Shown here: positions 1 to 16,300 of the stretch, piece after piece
How positions within the stretch are numbered: the stretch's first letter is position 1
Layout of the letters: the number at the start of each line of letters is the position of its first letter
Assembly: GCA_950295325.1 (NCBI GenBank)
Contig: OX485809.1
Span: forward strand, 14,756,001 to 14,820,000
DNA from: Polytrichum commune
Lineage: Eukaryota; Streptophyta; Polytrichopsida; Polytrichales; Polytrichaceae
Direction of reading: 5' to 3'
DNA length: 64,000 nucleotides
Translations under genes and position numbers: made by a program
The notes under the pieces: generated by a model
Told to the model about the DNA's origin: nothing
The model's database searches: none
Seen by the model: the letters and a program-made list of their open reading frames with translations, nothing else

Positions 1-109
1 CTCTCGATCGAGAGGAACTCCCCAGGGTGCAGAGGGTTCCTCTTGATCGAGAGGAACTTCCCAGGGTGCAGAGGGTTCCTCTCGATCGAGAGGAACTCCC
101 CAGGGTGCA
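1..109. repeat. 39-bp tandem repeat with palindromic core
   Basis: Two full units (1-39, 40-78) and a partial third (79-109) of a 39-bp repeat. Each unit holds the palindrome CTCGATCGAG (3-12, 81-90; one mismatch at 42-51). The array is open in one frame and would encode a 13-residue repeat containing PLDREEL. It is cut by the window edge, so its true length and whether it is exonic are unknown. The same core recurs at 1925-1934, 1961-1970 and 2803-2812. Confidence 0.9.
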
Positions 110-218
110 AGTTTGTTTCATTCATATTGGTTCTTGTATTGACATTCAACAATTCTTGTATTTTGACATGGCAGAATTTCACAACAAGCATGGAGGCCTC
201 TTTCACAGCCATAGCTAG

Positions 219-3200
219 AGGAATCACTCATGCAAATCTGAATGCAGAGCTCACCCTCATCATGGCTCCAGATCCGACGTCGAGATTGTGGAGGAGATTT
301 TTATAGCTCACGAAGAGGGCACACTCATGAATCCAGATAAGCATGGCTATACATTTCTGGATGACTACATGGAGGCTCAACAGAAGCTGCGAGCCCGTCA
401 CGAAAAGAAAAAGTCGCCTTCTGCATTTGAAGAAAAACCCTATGTTTGCAAACCTCTAACAAGGGAGACCTTAAAAAACATGGCCGGCCTAACACGGGCT
501 GATTACTTCCTTTGTGCACAACGTATATTGGATATAAGGAATGGAGAGGATGTTCCCAGAGTGATTCTGAGAACGACAAAGAATCCAAAAGTTTCGACCT
601 TGAAGTCCTGGTCTAACTTTAGGAAATGGAAGAATAACTTACTTCAAGAGTTGTCTTCACGCGATCCAAAACAGCGTGGTATATGGGGAAATGATTCAGA
701 GGGTTTTGATTGCGTGGACCGTGCCGTTTGGATCAAGTTCAAAAAGGAGCACGGAATCACAAAGGCAAAGTGGGTTAAGCTCTACCAGGTTGCGGGTGAT
801 ACATGGCTCAATAAGAAGCGTTTGCCGAACAACAAGTACCTCGAGGCACCCCCTGCATGCGACCGATTGCTGCACGACTGACTTCAAACAGACATGCGGG
901 AGTGCAATTCGAAGGTCATCACACGCTGGGTAGATTACAATTCAATCAAGAAGCAATTGGTAATCCCTCACCAAGACAATAGCGATATCCAGTGGTTAAG
1001 TAAAAGCAACATATGTGGTGGATTCATAGACTTCAGATTTGTCCCTGGCAGCGTTGACCAACCGGTGTCCACTTCAGTCGTGGAGTCATTGGTGAAGTAC
1101 ATTACCAATCCGGCATGGTCCCCGGGTCTTAAGATTGTCCCTGCTTGGATGATTGTATCGGATCTCCGTAACCACCCAACAGCAGTTGAGTTCATATGTA
1201 TGTTGTGTCGGAGGCATCCAGACACGTTTGTGAATGTACCATCATTCTATTTCCCCTGCCCCGCTGAGGATCTGCCACCATGCAAGGAAGTAGACAGCAA
1301 GAGGACTTCTCCGGCTCTTTATGTCGACTTTCTGACAACCAAGCTCCTACCCAGGTTCAAAGTCTTCCCATGCCCAATGTTAGCTCCGGAATCTCGACGG
1401 TACACTGTGAGTCCCAAGCAGTGGTCGGAGTTGAGCTATGAAGTGAGTCGCGGCGAGCTGAGGATGGAAACATATCTTACATTCCTTAGCCACCTGGGAT
1501 GCTCGGGAGCAGTGGTCTTGAATTTCTTCGGAGGATTGAAGCCAATAGCTGCCGCACTGGTCAGTTCATTGCACCTCCTCTCTTCGCAACCTCTTCCATT
1601 CATTGGCATGCTTTCAACCGTGCATTCTCTATGATTGCTAATGAATTACTTGTGTGCAGATGAACGAATACAATGTATTTTCGTACATGGATTCGAATTT
1701 CATGCACACATTTGGCGACAAATTGGCACATATTCGTCCCCTTCGCGCCGTTGACTTTCAAGAGGATGAGTCTCATTTTGATGCTTACGGAGCACAGGAG
1801 CTAATTCAACCTATTCGAGATGAATCCCCTCCTCAATTGCTGGTACGTCTACATTATTGCACGAGTCAAGTGGAAATACATTGTGGACATACTTTAGTTT
1901 CTTTCAAGCCATTCTATATTTCCTCTCGATCGAGTGGAAGCTTGGTGGCCTGGTCTTCCTCTCGATCGAGTGGAAGCTTCGTCGTCTTCCCATGACCTTC
2001 CACATTCTTCGCATGGCCTAATGTTCTTGGTTAAACACAGGAGTATGTCCCAATTCAATATTCTCCCGTTGTCGGCATCGATAATATGGATATCGACAAC
2101 CCTGTCTCTGATGGGGACGACTACGAGGAGGCTCAAGATGATGACGACGAGCGGGAGGCACCAAGCGAGCAGGACACCGATGAGGCAAATAGCGAGTACG
2201 ATCTTCAATCCTCCCCTCTTGATTTACCAACCTCCCCTTTGCGAGCCAAGGCCCTCGACTTCGGCTATGCGTTGGAAGAACGCCGAGAACATCCGGCAGA
2301 ACCACACGAGGAGGAAGACGATAATGAAAGACATGCCGTTGGCGACCGCGAAGCGCACGAGGGCGATGAAGAAGATCAAGAAGACGATCAAGATGATGAT
2401 CACGACTCCGACCATGAGGATGATCGCAATGATGTCCGCGGGGACATAGATGAACTTCATGAAGCTAGTTCGAGATCATCCAGTTCAGATGATATCGGGC
2501 AAGACCTTCCTCCCCCGAGTTCATCAAAACCTACTACATCCACGAGGAGTAGGCATGTTTCCAGTAGATCCCCCCCAAAGGAACTGCAGTGGAGACGACG
2601 CAAACATAGGGTGATGGAGCCTGTCATCACCGAATCAATGATGGAAGACAAGATTGTGGGCATTCTGAGCAAAACGTTGACTCAGATGCTCTCGGGTATG
2701 TTTCAAGAAGCGATGTCTCAGGCCAAAGTTCTGCCCCTCCAACAAGTGCCTCAGACGACACCTTCCGTGCATGTCGCAACATCCACTCGGCCCGAAGTCC
2801 CACTCGATCGAGTGGAACTAGTGCATGCTGAACAAGCTATTGGCGTGCAAGGTGTCGATGTGGATAAATCCTTCAACGTTGATGCCCCGATGTTGGAAGT
2901 GGATGCCCCGACATCAGAAGTGGATGCTCCGACATTGGAAATGGATGCTCCGACATTGGAAGCGGATGTGCCGGCGGTTGCCATTGCAGCGTCGACGGTT
3001 CCCGTGGACTCCCCCGCCACGGCTGATACTAATGTAAGTATCATTCCGAATGTTTTAGCGCTTTGAATGCCTCTATACAAGTGACTGAATCTCCACCTGG
3101 ATGTTTGATCCAGGTTCGAGACGGCGCACCATTGTGAAGCGTTCGTGATCAACTATGAAGCCACATCCTTAGATCAATAGTTTAGTTTAGTTTAGTTTGG

Positions 3201-6200
3201 CTTTTTCCCATTCAGGCCACTGTAGACCGCCTTCAATGTGAAGGCAAGATGGAATATGTGCGCCTCATTATTATGAATAAAGTCATGATTTCCCTTCATA
3301 CTTCAATTTTATGTTTTATGGTCTTTAATGATCCGTTGGACTTCACAGGCTTCCTTGCCAATATTAGAGCACGTGGATCTTCTTCCGTCTACAGTAATGC
3401 CTCTTCCAACGTCGCCAATGTTCGATGTTCGGAACAATGAACCCTTGCCAATTCTTGGGCCCATCCAAGCACCGATAGCCACAGTAGCTTCTCGGCCTCG
3501 CGTAGTTTTGGGTTCAGGGTCCCAAATGCACGAACACGGCTATGGATGCGCCTGTACCAAAACATCTTGTTTATGATAAGCTCTTTGTTTACGATGACAC
3601 CTACCCAAAGGTCAATAGGCCTCTCCAAGTATTTACAAGGGAGATGGGAATCGCGTGTGCTAAAAGACTAATGTCTAAGTATCCTGAAGATCCCTCCTTA
3701 GGATCTTCTGATCTATGGGAATTCAATCCGATACGCTATGAGGTATATATTGGTTCGGTCACATATTACTGTTGTTAGGTTTCACTTTCGTATCGTCTGC
3801 GGCATTGACCTACCACCAATTTATAACTAAGTCATACATTGGTGAACTATATCATGCTTAGTTTAGTTCAATTGTTAAGTTCATGGTAGTAAGTTTAAGA
3901 TGCTCACCATGGATTCATTGCGGCAGGCGCTTGCTGCTGTCCCCCGTCGAAGGTTCATTGTGGTGTTCGATTTAAATGGCATATTTTGCCACTGTACCCC
4001 CCGTCTCAAGAATATGTTAACAATCCCTACGTGGATAATGCAAGATCGTGCGTTGGACAAAGAACCTGCATTGGTAGGGCCCAAGGTTGTCCTCCCTAGA
4101 CTGGGATACAAGACATTTTGGGAGAGCATGTCTACAATGTACCATCTTTGCATTTGGTCCTCCATGAAAAAATCTACAGTCGATCTTGTGGTGGACTATC
4201 TTTTTGCTGGGATGCCAAAACCCGCTATGGTACTCGGCCAAGAGGATTGCATCACGTTCAAGGATATGTGGGGAAATGTCGTGAGGAACCCTTTGAAGCC
4301 ACAATCTGTCTTGTTTTTCAAAAGTTTGACATCAAGGTTTTGGTGGCCACCTATATCCCTTGATGAAGGGAGAATTACTGCTACAATTTCCAACAGCATA
4401 CTTGTAGATGATTGCCCTTACAAGTCTGCTTGTAATCCGGACGAGTGTGGTTTGTTTCCCAGTCCCTTCACCAATAACCGGGTCGACGATGCAGACATGA
4501 CAAAGGTTCTCCTACCTTTCTTTCAAAGTATGTTCTACTCACCAATGTCAGACGCACGCGATTTCTTGGTAAGACGTAGATTTGGGCAGCAACCTGTCAG
4601 GCATAACGACGCAGTCAAACTGGCAATTCAGAAATCCAACAAGTTTCCCAATCAACCCGCATTGCAACCCTTAGAGCCTGTGCAAAGAAAATTAGGCTAA
4701 CTAGCTAGCATAATTAGGATTATATGCCATGTAACATTGTATTTTATGCTATCTTCAGTTTCCTCCTGCTGGATACACACCCTCAAGTTCCACACGATCT
4801 GCTTTCGTGTGCCCCACACCGGGCCATCTGCGCAATGAAGTCGTGGTGCAAGAAAAATCAGTAATGGATCATCCATTGGAGGATCCAGTTGTCAAGGGCA
4901 CTCACTCTGATCTCTTCCACCACCCCCAAACAACTGAAGGTTCCCATCTGGTAATTTTTGTGGCAATTCTCACTGCTTGAACACGGAGTATGTTATTGTG
5001 TAAATGTTTTGTAATATTCTACACACCACTTTCAATGCAGGCTCATTTGCATGAATGACTGAGTAGATTGGATATGAATATGCATGGATGTATATGTCAA
5101 TAACAATGGAATGTAGTAAATTGGCCCAACGCTTGTCCCGTTGTCATCGTGCAGAATGTTGACCTCAATATGATCCCCCAAGTCGAAGAATCGGCACCCC
5201 CTATTGAAGCGTTGTCAATCGTGCGCCCAACCAAGTCAAATCGCGATTACCAAATTTCGTTAATCGAATCAAGAGGCCCTAATTCAAGGGGTGTGCAAAT
5301 GTTGCGTGCTGGATTGGCTGGCATTGGCAAGACTTGTGTGCCTCAAGCAATCGCGACTACAGAGCCGTTTCCCCTTTTCAACGCGCAGGGTGCTGACCTC
5401 AATATGACTGGTCCGCTGGACAGTTCAACACCACCTAGCGAAACAATGCGTATACCCCGTCCCCTAGCTACCCGCGAGCATCAAATTGCTCTAATCGAAT
5501 CAAGAGGACCTAATTCACGAGGTGCACGTCTCTTGCATGCTGGACTAGCGGACATAGCCAAGACAGCTTCCCTTCTCACTGGGCAGCCAATGGTCACCCC
5601 CCCTTTTGAAGCCACTGTCCATAATCTCCATTCTGATGGACAACTATTCCGTTTGTACCCTAAATATAGTAGAAGTTAAATCTTCCCATACCAAATGTGT
5701 GCAGACATTCATACTTGTCTACTGCATTACTGCATTATGTAAAATATAAAAAGGTGGCCAAACACATTCACCACCCAATGCAGTTGCGTCCATCATATGC
5801 ATGTCTATGTACCCATTGTATGTAACCTATATGACTTGCATCAACATTTCCATGATGGCTTGGACTATCCTAAATCTCATATATGTCTTGCTTCAACATT
5901 TCCATGAACCCATGACCCCATGTATGCAATATGTAAGGCTGCCATTGTTTGTTGCACAAATATTCACGCGTGTACATATATTTCAAATGTCCTCAGCACA
6001 TTACGGAGGCTCCTCCTGCCCGAGCCCCCTCATGCCCATCTAGATTTGGGGAGTGGATCCAGAGATTACAAACAGCTGTTCCGGATGCCCCGCTGGACGC
6101 CCCAACAGAAGTGCGAAGTATGGACGACGAGTTTAAGAACTTAGCCCATGACATTGATGTGTGCACGGAACGGTTCTGGCAACTACAAACGAATATGACT

Positions 6201-6869
6201 ACAGCTCTGGATAGATATCAATGGTGCCGCTTGGTTGGAATGGATGCACACATGCTTGGTAGATTGGTGCATGCATCTATCAATATAGGGCTCAGCATCC
6301 CCCAAGTGGAGTTCCTCCAACAACGTGTACCCGATTTGCACTTAATGGAGAACGAGATGTGGGAAGGCACACAAGAAATCGAACCTCATTTACATGACCT
6401 ACTCCAGCCTGATTCAGAGGCGATGGTGAACCATGTCTATGACAATGAGGAGAACCTCCCAATCACACCAATGTTGGAAGCATGTCGGATGGACCAACCA
6501 TCTCATGAGGAAGGGGGTCTGGTCGAGCCCCCAATGGGAGAGCATACAATTGCCGACGAGTTTATTCACTTAGCAGAGGAGATTGATGAAGTTACGGATA
6601 AGTTTATGAGGCTACAAACGACTATGACCACTGCTCTAGAGAGATATACGAAGTGTCTTTTGCTCAGCGATCGCATATACAACCTTGAGAGAGTGGTGCT
6701 TGCGGCACAACATATTGGGTTTGACTCTCAACAAATGGGCTATATCGAGAGCAAAATCCCAGACTTGATGTACATGGAGAAAGTTGCGTGGGAACAATCT
6801 TTGGAAATCAAACCTCATTTGGAAAACATCTATGAGTCCATGGACAATCAGCTCAAAAACTTAGAGTAA
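219..6869 (+). CDS. Large multidomain gene with FCP1-like HAD domain (about 10 exons)
   Basis: Inferred exons: about 219-795 (5' limit unknown), 892-1559, 1660-1842, 2041-3033, 3349-3393, 3518-3742, 3900-4679, 4759-4950, 5155-5616 and 5997-6869 (TAA). All internal junctions are GT-AG and phase-compatible, giving about 1,660 codons. The first in-frame ATG is near 327; upstream exons may lie outside the window. The N-terminal part is unrecognised. It ends in VLNFFGG followed after splicing by NVFSYMDSN, weakly like the glycine loop and acidic strand of a Rossmann methyltransferase. Exon 2041-3033 is strongly acidic (long D/E runs), then carries a VDAPT repeat. Exon 3900-4679 is an FCP1-like HAD domain. 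Exons 5155-5616 and 5997-6869 each hold a duplicated module. The last exon may belong to a separate gene, because the frame of the previous one can also run to a stop at 5679. No overall function can be assigned. Confidence 0.6.
1925..1970. repeat. Two intronic copies of the CTCGATCGAG palindrome repeat
   Basis: Two direct copies 36 bp apart (cores 1925-1934 and 1961-1970), each followed by TGGAAGCTT, inside the intron 1843-2040 of the large plus-strand gene. Both belong to the same family as the array at 1-109. Confidence 0.85.
2086..2460 (+). other. Acidic low-complexity coding segment
   Basis: Within exon 2041-3033 the encoded protein is dominated by Asp and Glu, with clusters such as DDYEEAQDDDDE and EDQEDDQDDDHDSD. 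It then turns Ser-rich and contains a basic patch (KELQWRRRKHR). The composition predicts a disordered linker, perhaps with a nuclear signal in the basic patch; that role is inference. Confidence 0.75.
2798..2821 (+). repeat. Palindrome repeat copy inside coding sequence
   Basis: CCACTCGATCGAGTGG (2800-2815) is a perfect 16-bp palindrome in exon 2041-3033. It reads PLDRVEL in frame and closely resembles the PLDREEL encoded by the array at the window start. A mobile or copied short repeat has apparently been accepted in frame. Confidence 0.8.
2878..2970 (+). repeat. Coding VDAPT repeat
   Basis: About five copies of a 27-30 bp unit encode DAPMLEV, DAPTSEV, DAPTLEM and DAPTLEA in tandem near the end of exon 2041-3033. 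The units differ at several positions, so the array is not brand new. Confidence 0.85.
3900..4679 (+). other. FCP1-like (NIF/HAD) phosphatase-type domain
   Basis: Single exon of 260 codons within the large gene. Visible motifs are FIVVFDLNGIFC (nucleophile Asp at exon codon 24; the second Asp of the canonical DxDx(T/V) is Asn), then LCIWSS with a following KKSTVDLVVDYLF, and ILVDDCPYKSACNP (HAD motif IV with paired Asp). This order and spacing match the plant FCP1-like HAD group, whose members also carry DLNG rather than DxDG. Canonical FCP1-type enzymes dephosphorylate Ser/Thr, for example in the RNA polymerase II C-terminal domain. Loss of the second Asp, the usual general acid, makes normal catalysis doubtful here. 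The domain call is firm; activity and substrate are unknown. Confidence 0.8.
5155..5616 (+). repeat. Coding duplication with LIESRGPNSRG motif
   Basis: The exon encodes two copies of a module of about 80 residues. Each runs DLNM..., I.RP, then LIESRGPNSRG and AGLA.I.KT: once at about 5160-5330 and again at about 5398-5570. The module is not one I recognise. Exact conservation of ESRGPNSRG between copies suggests functional constraint or recent duplication. Confidence 0.8.
6121..6860 (+). repeat. Coding duplication of an approximately 95-residue helical module
   Basis: The terminal exon encodes two related modules. The first starts DEFKNLAHDID (about 6127-6405) and the second DEFIHLAEEID (about 6556-6834). 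Shared landmarks are LQT.MTTAL.RY, a PDL..ME..., WE and EI.PHL. A Pro/Glu-rich linker joins them. Both look mainly alpha-helical, and the family is not recognised. Confidence 0.8.
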
Positions 6870-8850
6870 TTCCAGTTCAGCCATTTAAAATGCATTATAC
6901 TTAGGACAATACTCAACACATTACGTATCTTCTAGCATAGAAACGCAGTGTTTCATTGGAGGACATTGTGGGAGCAGTTCCCTCCTTGTATAATCATATC
7001 TTTTTGTTTAGTAAAATCATCAGGCAAGCCACTTTCTTGGGACCCCCCAGGTGTGTTCATGAAATTGGTCACCCACATGGCAAATGCAAACAACCAATGG
7101 ACTCAAAGCATAATATACGTCTCGCATGTGTTGTCCTGTCCTAAAGAGTTCCCAATGTGTTCCCAATGAGTTCCCAATGAGTTGCGTATGAGGTCCCCAC
7201 TGGCATCACAGATGTCCCAAAATTACCCTAAAGTCCCATAATGTTTAATATCGTGTTATGTAGGATGGGGTAATATGTCATAATAATGTGGAGGGATCTG
7301 AATATTTGGTCAGAGTCAGCATGCATGCAAGGGGTTGATCACACCAACCAATTTTGATACCATCCATGAGCATCTCAAGCTATAATAATGTGAAAAGTGG
7401 TGGACCAACATCTATTTATGAACATACTGTAATCCCCAACAATTTCATGGTTGGAGTCAGATAGAAACTTTGGTGTGATTGGGGCATGAGAGCATGCCTC
7501 CTTCCTCGAGGTTTCCAATACAACCGGTTAGTTTTCACCACGTGTCAAATAATCATTGCTTCCACATATGGTGTATCCTTCATCTTGATATGATATTTAC
7601 TTTATATGCTTCACCGCCAACCAAGTCCTTATTAAAGTGTGGTTAGTGCCTTTGTAATCACCGCCTTCCTCGAAACATGCACCCTCAAATAAAAAGAGAA
7701 CAAACTCTATGGTCTTAATAATAATGTTATGTGTTGATGAGATCACCGTTCCAAATTTCCAAAATGACCAGTCGTTGACAATGACGGCATGTTGAACGAA
7801 CGGTGTGGGATGAACTAGAACATTGACTCATAAGCACGGATGCAACGGAGCAAAACCAAGGGCAACTTGTGAATGGCACTTGTAATTAGTACATTGAACG
7901 CTTGGAGGCCATTGACCGTGATTGAAGCAAACTTGAAACAAACAAGGCTTACCAAAAGGTGACTTTACATGTATGGAAGGGAAAAATCTAGATTTGGAGA
8001 TTTATAATTATCACATGTGTATGATACTCCACATAATTGTATACATGGTTTTATAGTTAAACTCTATTTCAAAAAGAGGTAAATAAACATTATTTTGGCC
8101 ATAACTTGTCACGTTCTTTACGATGCAATAGTGGATGATATGAATTATGTAGAATGTGGTAGGCATTTGTTGGTAACTTACAACAAAACAACACCAATAT
8201 CAAATCCCCAAAGTTTAAATACTAGTGAAATAGTTGTATCAAAACCTTACATATATATTTTGAATTTGATTGCATAATGACTGTTTAATGTTATAAGATT
8301 GACAATGAATAGGACGGATTGTGAACATACAACATTTCAATTATGGATGCAATGTTATGGAAATATGAGATCCAAACATGCACAATCAGTGAAAAACTTG
8401 CTCCTAAACAATTCGTAATGAAGTAATAATTTATTCAATGTCCGTGTTGTAAATGAGTTTAAGTTGTAAACATAATGCAATCTATATATCAATGCTATGT
8501 TCATCCTCTAATGTAGATGTGTGTTTTCAACATTTGTAAAGCATTACAAATGCATTTCAAACATATTGCCACCTGTTGCAAAACCGATATAAAGGTGGGC
8601 ACAATAGTATATTCCTTTCTGTATTAGCAATTTTGCAACGCTTTTTGAGAACTTAGAACCAATATGGGGATCTCCAACATCCACAAAACCGTTGCAAAAC
8701 TGTTGCAAGAATGTTACAATTATGTTACAATCTATACCCCTGGGTACTAGTGCTCTGCAGTTCTGATCCACCGCTCCTTGAAGCCATCCTTGTGGTGCCT
8801 AGAATCTTATCCTCTCCACCGTTTTACGTCCTGAATCGCATAGAAACTTT
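6870..8850. other. Intergenic, no gene seen
   Basis: AT-rich sequence with only short stop-broken frames. A small imperfect tandem of GTTCCCAATG occurs near 7146-7185. I see no RNA gene, transposon terminus or conserved protein motif here. Confidence 0.6.
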
Positions 8851-13346: not shown

Positions 13347-16300
13347 TCAAGTTCCATCTTCTTCCTGAGGCTCAGAGTTAGCAGGTGGAGTTTCTTCTGT
13401 CTTGCCACAAAACTTGAGCACAAAGCTTTGAAATGTCTGCACAGCCCGATTGACATCGGAAACTTTCCTCTCCTTCAGCATATCTCGCAACACTGCTCGC
13501 ATCTCATCACATTCCTTCTTCTTGGCCTTGTCTGCTCCTAATTGCTCCTCATTCACATCGTCTTGGATCTAAATAGCAAGATGACATTAATACACGTTAA
13601 GTCATGACCAGAGACCCAACAGGCTGCATAATCCAGCCCCAATCTGGCCACTTACACTTCGACGATGATCTAGGAACTCAGGAATTTTAGACGATTGCTT
13701 ATCTTGTACACTTTTAACAACCCTCCAATCACAATAACATGTTTGAGAGATATGACTCGCAAACAAGAAGTATTCACTTTTTGGTCATCAATAACAATTT
13801 TGTATTTGATCTTGTTGGCTTATCCATGGATTCCTGTGAATTGTGGCCCAAATATTTCATGTGGGTATTCATTCCCCAAAAGTTTGCGTACACAGAATTT
13901 CCTTTCCCCTCCCATCATTTATTGGGAACATCATCTTGATTGTGCCTCTAAATCCTAAAACACAGTCATAGGACCCTCCAGGTGACCATTACATTTTATC
14001 AAATTTCAAGTCACTGCTCTAAGGTTGCTGCTCACCACTCGCCATGTTAGCACCAGTGTTAGACTGGGTATATAGGTGAATGCATGGTATGAATAATCAA
14101 CATCAATAATGGTATCAAAGAACCTACCCACGGGTATCAAAATTATAATACGAGTCAAATATTGATATTTGGTGGGTATGTCAAGGTGAGAGATCTTTGT
14201 ATACCCGAGTTATCATTTGGGTCAATACCATTCTAAACCATATTGATACTAGTACGATTTGACCTAGGTATGAAGGTCCTTGCATTGTATGTATACCTGA
14301 ATGGTATCGAAAAGAAAAACTCCATGAAATACCCATACCCTACATGTCAAAAAATGTGGCATCCTCATTATAGATACCCGAAAGGTACTTAATAAAAACA
14401 ATACCAATCCAACACTGGTTAGAACCGACACCAATAGGGTATGGGTATTTCACGGAGTTTTTCTTTTCGATACCATTCGGGTATATATACCATGCAAGGA
14501 CCTTCATGCCTAGGTAAAATCATACTAGTATCAATATGGTTTAGAATGGTATTGACCCAAATGATAACTTGGGTATACAAAGATCTCTCACCTTGACATA
14601 CCCAACAAATATCAAAATTTGACTCGTATTACAATTTTGATACCCATGGGTAGGTTCTTTGATACCATTATTGATGTTGATTATTCATGCCATGCATTCA
14701 CCTATATACCCAGTCTAACATTGGTTAGCACTGCTGATCAGTACAAATCAACTTGACCATAATATTCTCTCTTGATTGTCTGGGTCTAAAGAAAACTTTG
14801 AATCAGTTCTTGCATCCAGTATGGACATCAATGAAGGAATGGTAGAAGTGCCCTTCAGATAGGAGCAAGCTTCAATAATCAAACCCTCTAATTCAGATTC
14901 TTATACCCGAGCACTGGTCACACTTAAAATGCTTCCTGGATAGAGAGAGGCCCCAGACTCTTCAAAATCGAAATGAGATTGGACAAAATTAGATGAGGTT
15001 GTACCTGCAACCATGTCTTCTTGAGAAGATCATACACGACAGCAGGAGTAGCTCGAATATCATGTGAATTCGCAACACTGGCGAATGCCGAGGGAGAGAT
15101 ATTGTCACCACCATCAGGCATAAGCAGTAATGTTTCTCTGAACATACGCAACGCATTCGTCTCTGAAACTGATGCATCCGCACAATGAATGATTTCGCGG
15201 AACTCATTGAATGTCAAAACACCATCCTGGTTGGCATCACCGGCCTTGAACAAATTCTCAAGATCCATACTCTGCATGAACCGCATCAAAAGTCATTATA
15301 ATGGAACAAGAGGACATCATTAAATGAGCCTGTTAAAATGAAGATTTTAAACTCATATATTGAATATCAATCAAATCTTAGGAAGTAAGTGGCACAAGAC
15401 CAAAGACAACAAAAATTAATGCACAAAAGTACAAACCTTGAAAAAGATGTGCAACAAAGATTTTGAGGCTTTACCTTCGGGAATTATTTGGTTCCCATCC
15501 ACTTTGCCAACATATTATAAGAATAAAATCATAATGTCTGTAGCTCATACTACATAGAATTTGTTTGTATTATCCCTCCCATCCATCTAAGAAGGGTCAC
15601 TAAGCAAAGAGGTCATTGGGAATGATTATGTACACGTTGTAATCCTTGTGATGATGATTGAACACAAATCCATACATGATCAAAGAGATCAAATAGACAG
15701 TTCAATTCTTCAGGCTATCAACGTACATGAGCATCTTCCAAGTCAAGTCATTCCACATCAACTAGTATTTAATGAAATAAAGATGAGAAGTGTACTTCAT
15801 ATGAAGGATTCAAGCACGATTCAAGTAGGATGGTGACACCCCCTTCAGAGTAGAGTGGGATTTTCATACTAAATTCTTTATAAATAGCATGAGAACTCTA
15901 AATGATAATTGTAGCACTTAGTCTTGTGAGATGTTTATGCTTAGAAATAAGGGAAAAGAAAATTTAGTGTTCTTACATCCTCTTTGCTCATTGCTGCAGC
16001 AGCTTTGGGTGCGGCCTTTGGCTTTGGTGGTTTCTTACTCTCCTGGATTTAGGCATCCATTTTTAGTAAGTAGGGACTTGGATTGCCTATGTCAATCCTT
16101 ATAAGATTCTATCAAGCAAACTTTATAGACAAGAGAGCGACTCGAGAGTTGGTTAAGGCTTTGGTTTATTATAACAAAAGGATTGATAATGTAAGCCGGG
16201 AATAGAAGTGAATGATACAATAGATTACTTGATCCCATGAACGGGTAGTGAAGACATAAGTAAGAGCAATTTGACAGACGATTAATGTTTACATATGTGC

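What the first reader, a model, noticed from the sequence alone, without database searches (positions are those of the whole stretch)
219..6869. Unnamed multidomain gene joining an FCP1-like HAD domain to duplicated novel modules
Ten exons with consistent phases encode an architecture I cannot match to a known protein. It has an N-terminal module, a D/E-rich linker, VDAPT repeats, a DLNG-type FCP1-like domain, a twice-repeated LIESRGPNSRG module and a twice-repeated helical module of about 95 residues. This is the best candidate here for an undescribed protein family.
Basis: partly seen in the sequence, partly recalled or inferred. Interest (0 to 1): 0.75.

Follow-up and report, generated by a model that had tools for sequence, protein, structure and literature searches.

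The report
Giant transposon's ParB-phosphatase-like accessory gene
The "unknown gene" is the second gene of a 23-kilobase jumping gene that is scattered through this genome, and its protein may recognise its own element through repeated mirror-image DNA sites carried inside it.

Summary
The exons are real, but this is not a host gene. Window 1-7257 is the right end of a 23,031-bp DNA transposon (C7:14740227-14763257) with terminal inverted repeats and 4-bp target duplications (6 of 6 copies read). Its left end carries an opposite-strand DUF7869 gene, the likely transposase. Both enzyme-like parts lack a canonical catalytic residue (DFRxxPG for DPPY, inferred; DLN for DxD), yet the low dN/dS points to purifying selection. 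The window copy is broken (1-bp deletion near 294, TGA at 879-881). Closest in print: the 21.5-kb Sola1-1_Ec32 of Ectocarpus, with a ParB-methyltransferase gene opposite its transposase; no HAD in the passages read. Not found in print: the HAD part, and arrays of palindromes of about 20 bp inside the elements, different for each ParB clade and near-absent from the flanks read, which I take for parS-like self-recognition sites (inferred). New variant of a known kind.

The parts
1..7257 (.). right-hand 7.26 kb of a 23,031-bp DNA transposon whose left end is at C7:14740227, upstream of the window
   Evidence: similarity among four copies stops at the same ends; facing TIR pair
7231..7257 (-). right terminal inverted repeat (AACACGATATTAAACATTATGGGACTT on the minus strand)
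   Evidence: 102 forward and 103 reverse matches genome-wide at up to 2 mismatches, 0 in the reversed control
7258..7261 (.). 4-bp target site duplication ATGT (its partner lies directly left of C7:14740227)
   Evidence: CTTA, GGTT, CATG at three sister copies; AACA and ATTT at two copies of a distant subfamily
1660..1842 (+). next exon, completes the motif-I region (MNEYNVFSYMDS...)
   Evidence: junction supported by an intron-less copy
2041..3033 (+). acidic D/E-rich linker with VDAPT-type repeats
   Evidence: no Pfam family; dN/dS 0.36
3506..3742 (+). short open frame upstream of the HAD exon, conserved in copy C
   Evidence: no Pfam family
3927..4697 (+). FCP1/NIF-type HAD domain, motif I DLNG
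   Evidence: Pfam NIF 39.8 bits; motif conservation; SCP1 nearest among solved structures, E 4e-5 for the whole chain
5155..5676 (+). twice-repeated LIESRGPNSRG module
   Evidence: 92 matches; dN/dS 0.37
5997..6866 (+). twice-repeated helical module, subfamily-specific
   Evidence: 76 matches; dN/dS 0.43
76..95 (.). palindrome TTCCTCTCGATCGAGAGGAA (candidate operator site; a variant lies at 37-56, and another site straddles the window start)
1920..1939 (.). near-palindrome TTCCTCTCGATCGAGTGGAA in an intron
1956..1975 (.). near-palindrome TTCCTCTCGATCGAGTGGAA in an intron
2798..2817 (.). near-palindrome TCCCACTCGATCGAGTGGAA inside the linker exon

Best explanation
The finding is the right half of the accessory gene of a 23-kb, Sola1-like DNA transposon present in many copies in a 408-Mb genome. 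The element has two gene blocks on opposite strands: a DUF7869 gene at the left end (likely transposase) and, from about window -1650 onward, a gene for a ParB/DGQHR-like + methyltransferase-like + acidic linker + HAD protein. Shown: TIRs, 4-bp target duplications, copy number, linkage of the parts, homology of the ParB-like and methyltransferase-like stretches across subfamilies, low dN/dS, and family-specific palindrome arrays inside the elements. Inferred: the ParB and methyltransferase labels (motifs, weak fold matches, published parallel) and the mechanism, in which the ParB-like part binds the palindrome arrays carried by the element itself, so that the protein coats or marks its own DNA; the methyltransferase-like and HAD parts, both without a canonical catalytic residue, then act there on base modification, phosphorylated chromatin or polymerase tails, or purely as binding modules, to keep the element expressed or mobile. 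The window copy has lost the intact protein through a frameshift and a stop codon.
For: Boundaries, TIRs and TSDs: (4-bp TSD in 6 of 6 copies read). TIR pattern 102 forward and 103 reverse, control 0 and 0. Of 94 zero-mismatch ends, 27 facing pairs; 24 of 27 are 21.9-31.5 kb long, 26 of 27 hold a HAD match and 22 of 27 an N-module match. N-module to HAD on one strand: 48 of 51 close copies and 29 of 78 distant ones; distant N-module to opposite-strand DUF7869 33 of 78; HAD to DUF7869 18 of 140; controls 0-2 (capped lists, rows dropped as told in the full report). DUF7869 140.5 bits. ParB-like and MT-like stretches of the window clade match subfamily F and others at E down to 1e-24 and 6e-30 and align in 18 pieces. 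Of the 50 fold matches listed for the predicted model, 6 are KorB (a ParB protein) and 43 are N6-adenine methyltransferase complexes or enzymes, E 0.019-0.15 (many entries of the same proteins). Published ParB-methyltransferase gene in Sola1-1_Ec32, found after the reading was noted. Palindromes. dN/dS.
Against: No Pfam, NCBIfam or PHROG family recognises the ParB-like or MT-like parts at a significant level (the one PHROG 'ParB-like partition protein' hit has E 0.18), and profile searches of solved structures found nothing credible for them. The AlphaFold model is poor overall (mean pLDDT 47.6); no fold match has E below 0.001, target TM-scores of the rows listed are 0.25-0.42 and rmsd 6-17 A. 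The recalled ParB CTPase signature is absent. The transposase model gave no meaningful fold match. The link to Sola1 rests on architecture and TSD length; no Sola1 reference sequence was available. No expression data; organism not identified. 8 of 46 exact palindrome sites lie outside the spans counted.
Confidence: 0.82

Rival explanations
1. A host gene of an undescribed family, with repeats arising from ordinary gene-family expansion.
For: Long frames, domain order and low dN/dS look like a normal gene.
Against: Near-identical copies on different chromosomes end at the same TIRs with different 4-bp duplications; the window copy is broken.
Confidence: 0.01
2. The DNA transposon is real, but the palindromes are small parasitic or structural repeats (hairpin mini-elements, siRNA-producing inverted repeats, or slippage products) with no tie to the ParB-like protein.
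For: They occur in introns, between genes and even inside an exon (window 2798-2817), often in tandem units some 36-90 bp long, as slippage or mini-elements would give.
Against: Each ParB clade has its own arms but a shared layout, arms ending in CG around a 2-bp centre in four of five classes; two loci fetched before their palindromes were known fitted; 38 of 46 exact sites lie in 0.3% of the genome.
Confidence: 0.4
3. The accessory protein is an active DNA N6-adenine or N4-cytosine methyltransferase that marks the element, as proposed for Sola1-1_Ec32.
For: Domain order, motif-I-like N-x-FGG-x-K and fold neighbours; published proposal.
Against: Where the catalytic DPPY-type motif is expected, DFRxxPG is invariant in 9 of 9 rows.
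Confidence: 0.2
4. HAD, LIESRG and helical modules form one or more separate genes captured by the element, not part of the ParB-MT protein.
For: The HAD frame ends in a stop at 4698-4700; the helical module has no match in the sister subfamily at C3:1.96-1.99 Mb, where LIESRG is present. The HAD frames of the window and of L020 do have a Met before the DLN motif.
Against: In subfamily F (L017) and in L021 the HAD frame has no Met before the DLN motif, which suggests an upstream exon; N-module to HAD spacing is 2.8-4.2 kb in the 29 distant pairs.
Confidence: 0.3

Closest known systems
Sola1-1_Ec32 of Ectocarpus (PMC12477816; passages and part of the reference list seen)
   Same: giant (21.5 kb) DNA transposon with a protein of ParB-like and N4C/N6A-methyltransferase domains encoded opposite the transposase
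   Different: the words 'phosphatase' and 'palindrom' do not occur in that text; here the expected methyltransferase catalytic motif is replaced, a HAD follows, and family-specific palindrome arrays are present
Sola superfamily in general (PMC10741241, passage; PMC3627910, passages on Sola2)
   Same: 4-bp TSDs, TIRs, some members over 15 kb, reported in the moss Physcomitrella
   Different: homology of DUF7869 to Sola1 transposase not tested here (no reference sequence)
ParB/KorB partition and operator systems (site facts recalled)
   Same: predicted fold neighbour KorB; dyad DNA sites in clusters
   Different: eukaryotic-type transposon with introns; GQHS in place of the recalled ParB CTPase signature; binding not shown
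FCP1/SCP (NIF) phosphatases
   Same: Pfam NIF match and conserved motifs II-IV
   Different: second Asp of DxD is Asn in 5 of 5 rows aligned

Membership tests
Sola1 DNA transposon | 4-bp target site duplication | tested here: met
   6 of 6 copies read
Sola1 DNA transposon | terminal inverted repeats | tested here: met
Sola1 DNA transposon | DDD transposase of RNase H fold | tested here: inconclusive
   DUF7869 140.5 bits; strand/helix order fits, with motifs IHDKMD, VQLDN, GHTHDDID at strands 1, 4 and after 5 by my reading, but pLDDT 50.5 and no fold match
Sola1 DNA transposon | sequence homology to reference Sola1 transposases | not testable with these tools
   no transposon reference library held
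ParB/sulfiredoxin-like domain | fold | tested here: inconclusive
   residues 281-390 of the model have pLDDT about 80; KorB is the best match, E 0.019, probability 0.91, but TM-score on the target 0.35
ParB/sulfiredoxin-like domain | ParB CTPase signature (GERRxRA, recalled) | tested here: not met
   the site reads [ND]GQH[STN] in 8 of 8 rows; closer to the recalled DGQHR motif
beta-class N6A/N4C DNA methyltransferase | motif I FxGxG-like near the C-terminus (recalled) | tested here: inconclusive
   N-x-FGG-x-K invariant in 9 of 9 rows, resembling but not matching FxGxG; continues into the next exon
beta-class N6A/N4C DNA methyltransferase | catalytic [DNS]PP[YFW] motif IV (recalled) | tested here: not met
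   DFRxxPG invariant in 9 of 9 rows at the strand that should carry it (correspondence inferred from the model)
FCP1/SCP (NIF) HAD phosphatase | NIF domain | tested here: met
   39.8-59.9 bits in 4 of 4 HAD exons scanned, cut-off 21.8
FCP1/SCP (NIF) HAD phosphatase | DxDx[TV] catalytic motif (recalled) | tested here: not met
   DLN in 5 of 5 rows; Ser (motif II), Lys (III) and DD (IV) kept
host gene | absence of mobile-element boundaries | tested here: not met

The most novel reading that the evidence does not exclude
A superfamily of eukaryotic DNA transposons carries its own ParB-parS-like self-recognition system: a ParB/DGQHR-like protein fused to methyltransferase-like and HAD domains, together with arrays of clade-specific palindromic operator sites scattered through the element, sites and protein having diverged together, so that each family marks its own copies.
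Probability: 0.5. Interest if true: 0.82.

Novelty: new variant of a known kind. Interest (0 to 1): 0.6.

Why it matters
Large DNA transposons often carry accessory genes of unknown use. Here the accessory protein comes with what look like its own DNA targets, repeated many times per element and different for each family. That makes the published guess, that such proteins bind and modify their own transposon, testable by a binding assay with sequences read off the genome. It also shows that many HAD (NIF) frames of this genome are transposon genes that an annotation could mistake for phosphatase genes.

Tried and rejected
Host gene family: rejected on TIRs, TSDs and copy positions. Sequence-only searches for the ParB-like and MT-like parts in Pfam, NCBIfam, PHROGs and solved structures found nothing significant; the toxin-component and Cas1 hits (E 0.26-0.43), the U1A hits (E 0.03-0.05) and the Occludin_ELL hit of the helical module (17.5 bits, cut-off 31.2) are taken as chance. 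Searches of viral contigs with A1 and A2 could not run (no conserved stretch), and I did not try again with A4 or A5, so relatives outside this genome were not sought in any sequence collection. The transposase fold search was uninformative. A second aligner was not available. dN/dS could not be computed for saturated pairs (7 of 17 rows). In one search the fourth row (L007) was cut from the wrong place and is disregarded; the comparison rests on L008 and L010. Two works cited by PMC12477816 (Iyer 2011; Petroll 2025) were seen only as references. Literature, judged from listings only: DUF7869 in 0 papers; 'HAD phosphatase' in none of the 20 papers listed; 8 papers with 'NLI interacting factor' and 'transposon' and 1 with 'Sola', 'DNA transposon' and 'haloacid dehalogenase', none on this subject by title; ParB with palindromes in a DNA transposon: 3 papers listed, of which PMC12477816 alone is on the subject and has no 'palindrom'.
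Full report
OBSERVATION. The HAD exon matches Pfam NIF at 39.8 bits (cut-off 21.8); the other exons scanned match no Pfam family above cut-off. Searching the window's own genome (G000, 407.8 Mb, 64 contigs, organism not named; the window is C7:14756001-14820000) shows that neither the HAD nor the N-module is unique: 149 HAD matches (148 of 1031 candidates scored) and 150 N-module matches (150 of 775 scored), with 8 N-module copies at 85-100% identity, the window's included, and near-identical pairs on different chromosomes.

BOUNDARIES. I compared the window copy (A) with copies on C6 at 38.88 Mb (B), C2 at 50.18 Mb (C) and C6 at 38.18 Mb (D). Similarity starts and stops at the same ends in all four: C7:14740227 to 14763257 for A, that is, 23,031 bp ending at window 7257. 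The ends are inverted repeats, AACACTATATTAAACATTTCGGGACTT and AACACGATATTAAACATTATGGGACTT, and each copy is flanked by its own 4-bp duplication: ATGT, CTTA, GGTT, CATG. Two copies of a distant subfamily F (C5 at 1.40 and 45.71 Mb) have ends AACACTATATTCGTTAAATTGAGACTT and duplications AACA and ATTT. The window-type end occurs 102 times forward and 103 reverse at up to 2 mismatches, against 0 and 0 for the reversed pattern. From the 94 zero-mismatch ends I formed 27 facing pairs; 24 of 27 are 21.9-31.5 kb long (the others 3.6, 15.7 and 41.9 kb, and some overlap in a nested cluster on C2), 26 of 27 hold a HAD match and 22 of 27 an N-module match.

GENES. At the left end, on the minus strand, lie exons with DUF7869 (140.5 bits). 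DUF7869 has 1492 first-look candidates in the genome (150 scored). Its predicted strand and helix order resembles an RNase H fold with Asp-bearing motifs at strands 1 and 4 and after strand 5, but confidence is low (mean pLDDT 50.5) and the fold search gave nothing meaningful; that it is the transposase is inference from position, motif and linkage. In copy C the ParB-like frame runs to L008:5932 and the next exon starts near L008:6245; in subfamily F the two parts lie in one open frame of 993 aa (L017:1907-4885). The window-clade pieces match those of F and other subfamilies at E down to 1e-24 (ParB-like) and 6e-30 (MT-like), and 18 pieces from ten loci align.

LINKAGE. I used 51 full-length close and 78 distant rows of the 150 (21 rows, mostly fragments, dropped), 74 close rows of the 149, 140 rows of the 152 matches, and all 150. 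N-module to HAD within 8 kb downstream on the same strand: 48 of 51 close (3.0-7.4 kb) and 29 of 78 distant (2.8-4.2 kb). Distant N-module to DUF7869 on the opposite strand upstream: 33 of 78, median 10.2 kb. HAD to DUF7869: 18 of 140. Other-strand, mirrored and random controls: 0, 0, 0; 1, 0, 0; 0, 1, 0; 0, 2, 0. Because the lists are capped, these are lower bounds.

WHAT THE PROTEIN IS. The first part contains [ND]GQH, with G, Q and H invariant in 8 of 8 rows. The N-module ends in ELR...N-x-FGG-x-K...A, invariant in 9 of 9 rows, and continues across an intron into MNEYNVFSYMDS; copy L022 lacks this intron and reads straight through. I read this as a ParB/DGQHR-like domain followed by a beta-class DNA-methyltransferase-like domain (motif names recalled; noted). 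The predicted model is poor overall (47.6) but about 80 over residues 281-390. Its best PDB match is KorB, a ParB protein (E 0.019); of the 50 rows listed (of 516 with E up to 10) 6 are KorB, 43 are N6-adenine methyltransferases (METTL3-METTL14, MTA1 and its complexes, M1.HpyAVI, M.BceJIV, AMT1-AMT7) and 1 is an RNase P protein pair; none has E below 0.001, and target TM-scores are only 0.25-0.42. Here the place expected for the methyltransferase catalytic motif reads DFRxxPG, and the HAD has DLN in place of DxD in 5 of 5 rows, the other HAD motifs being kept; the nearest solved HADs are SCP1, CTDNEP1 and UBLCP1 (E from 4e-5 for the whole chain, no single stretch passing alone). dN/dS point estimates: MT-like 0.07-0.10, HAD 0.16-0.28, DUF7869 0.17, linker 0.36, LIESRG 0.37, helical 0.43; 7 of 17 rows were saturated and no test was made. 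LIESRG gave 92 matches (100 of 100 candidates scored) and the helical module 76 (80 of 80); the helical module has no match at C3:1.96-1.99 Mb, where a sister element lies.

THE WINDOW COPY IS BROKEN. Against copies C and D it lacks 1 bp near 294, and it has TGA at 879-881 in a frame that is open in C. Its ParB-like exon and one DUF7869 exon are also split where C has single frames.

PALINDROMES. ACTCGATCGAGT is the commonest 12-bp palindrome in copies A and C (11 and 12 times; 13 in B, 11 in L027), with 0 in the 56.7 kb of the window outside the element and 0 in the flanks read. The fuller site is TTCC(A/T)CTCG-NN-CGAG(T/A)GGAA. Clade F instead has GTTTGGGTCG-NN-CGACCCAAAC, L029 TTTACGAACG-CG-CGTTCGTAAA, and L028 a near relative of that. 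Perfect palindromes with arms of 8 or more number 17 and 15 in elements A and C and 15 and 14 in the 9-kb parts of two F copies, against 5 in 56.7 kb, 0 in 4.2 kb and 5 in 18.7 kb outside; five shuffles each average 0-0.6 for the element parts and 0.2-1.8 for the others. I then fetched three pieces before their palindromes were known, scanned with arms of 7 or more: L037, of the window's ParB clade (84% identical to C), has 14 sites of the window class; L038, with a ParB match of 24% identity (E 1.5e-6), has 5 copies of a new class, (GCC)CACGGGTG-NN-CACCCGTG(GGC); L039, of type F, has 2 F-type sites. Genome-wide, TTCCACTCGATCGAGTGGAA occurs at 46 places (control 0), 38 of them in spans (chosen by me, -17 to +7 kb) around the 51 close N-modules, 0.3% of the genome, and 8 in three clusters outside. 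GTTTGGGTCGATCGACCCAAAC occurs at 1591 places (control 0); how many lie in elements was not counted. ParB core identity is 75-86% within the window and F clades, 54% between L028 and L029, and 27-46% between classes (8 sequences). Against the reading: L020 shows one site of the variants counted, and L021, L034 and L035 none beyond a bare CGATCG in L021 (they were not scanned for other palindromes); L026 has only 2; tandem units suggest spread by slippage.

MECHANISM. Shown: mobile element, two opposed gene blocks, conserved protein, clade-specific sites. Inferred: the ParB-like part binds the sites; the MT-like and HAD parts act there or only bind. Since both lack a canonical catalytic residue, a marking or scaffolding role is as likely as catalysis.

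NOVELTY. A transposon with a ParB-methyltransferase gene is a known kind. The HAD, the altered catalytic motifs and the clade-specific palindromes were not found in print in the library searched, judged from the listings and the passages.

Noticed in passing
window 14052-14725: Inverted repeat with 291-nt arms, 95% complementary, 92 nt apart: perhaps a hairpin or small mobile element.
   Followed up: no
L022/L036 (C7:5.10 Mb): A copy that lacks the intron after motif I, as after gene conversion with a processed transcript; its HAD reads NLN for DLN.
   Followed up: partly
G000 C2:23193592-23289424: Cluster of nested or inverted elements with many facing and tandem ends and mirrored HAD copies.
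   Followed up: no
L021 about 6503-6506 (C2:21347503): Abrupt junction between the MT-like exon on one strand and the C-terminal part of a DUF7869-type gene on the other, suggesting an internally deleted element.
   Followed up: no
L031, L032, L033: A divergent DUF7869 lineage (about 23% identical to the window family's) covering nearly the whole Pfam model; whether it has a ParB-HAD partner or palindromes is unknown.
   Followed up: no
G000 C1:63049582 and C1:63052384: Two HAD frames facing each other about 2.2 kb apart, possibly an inverted element pair.
   Followed up: no
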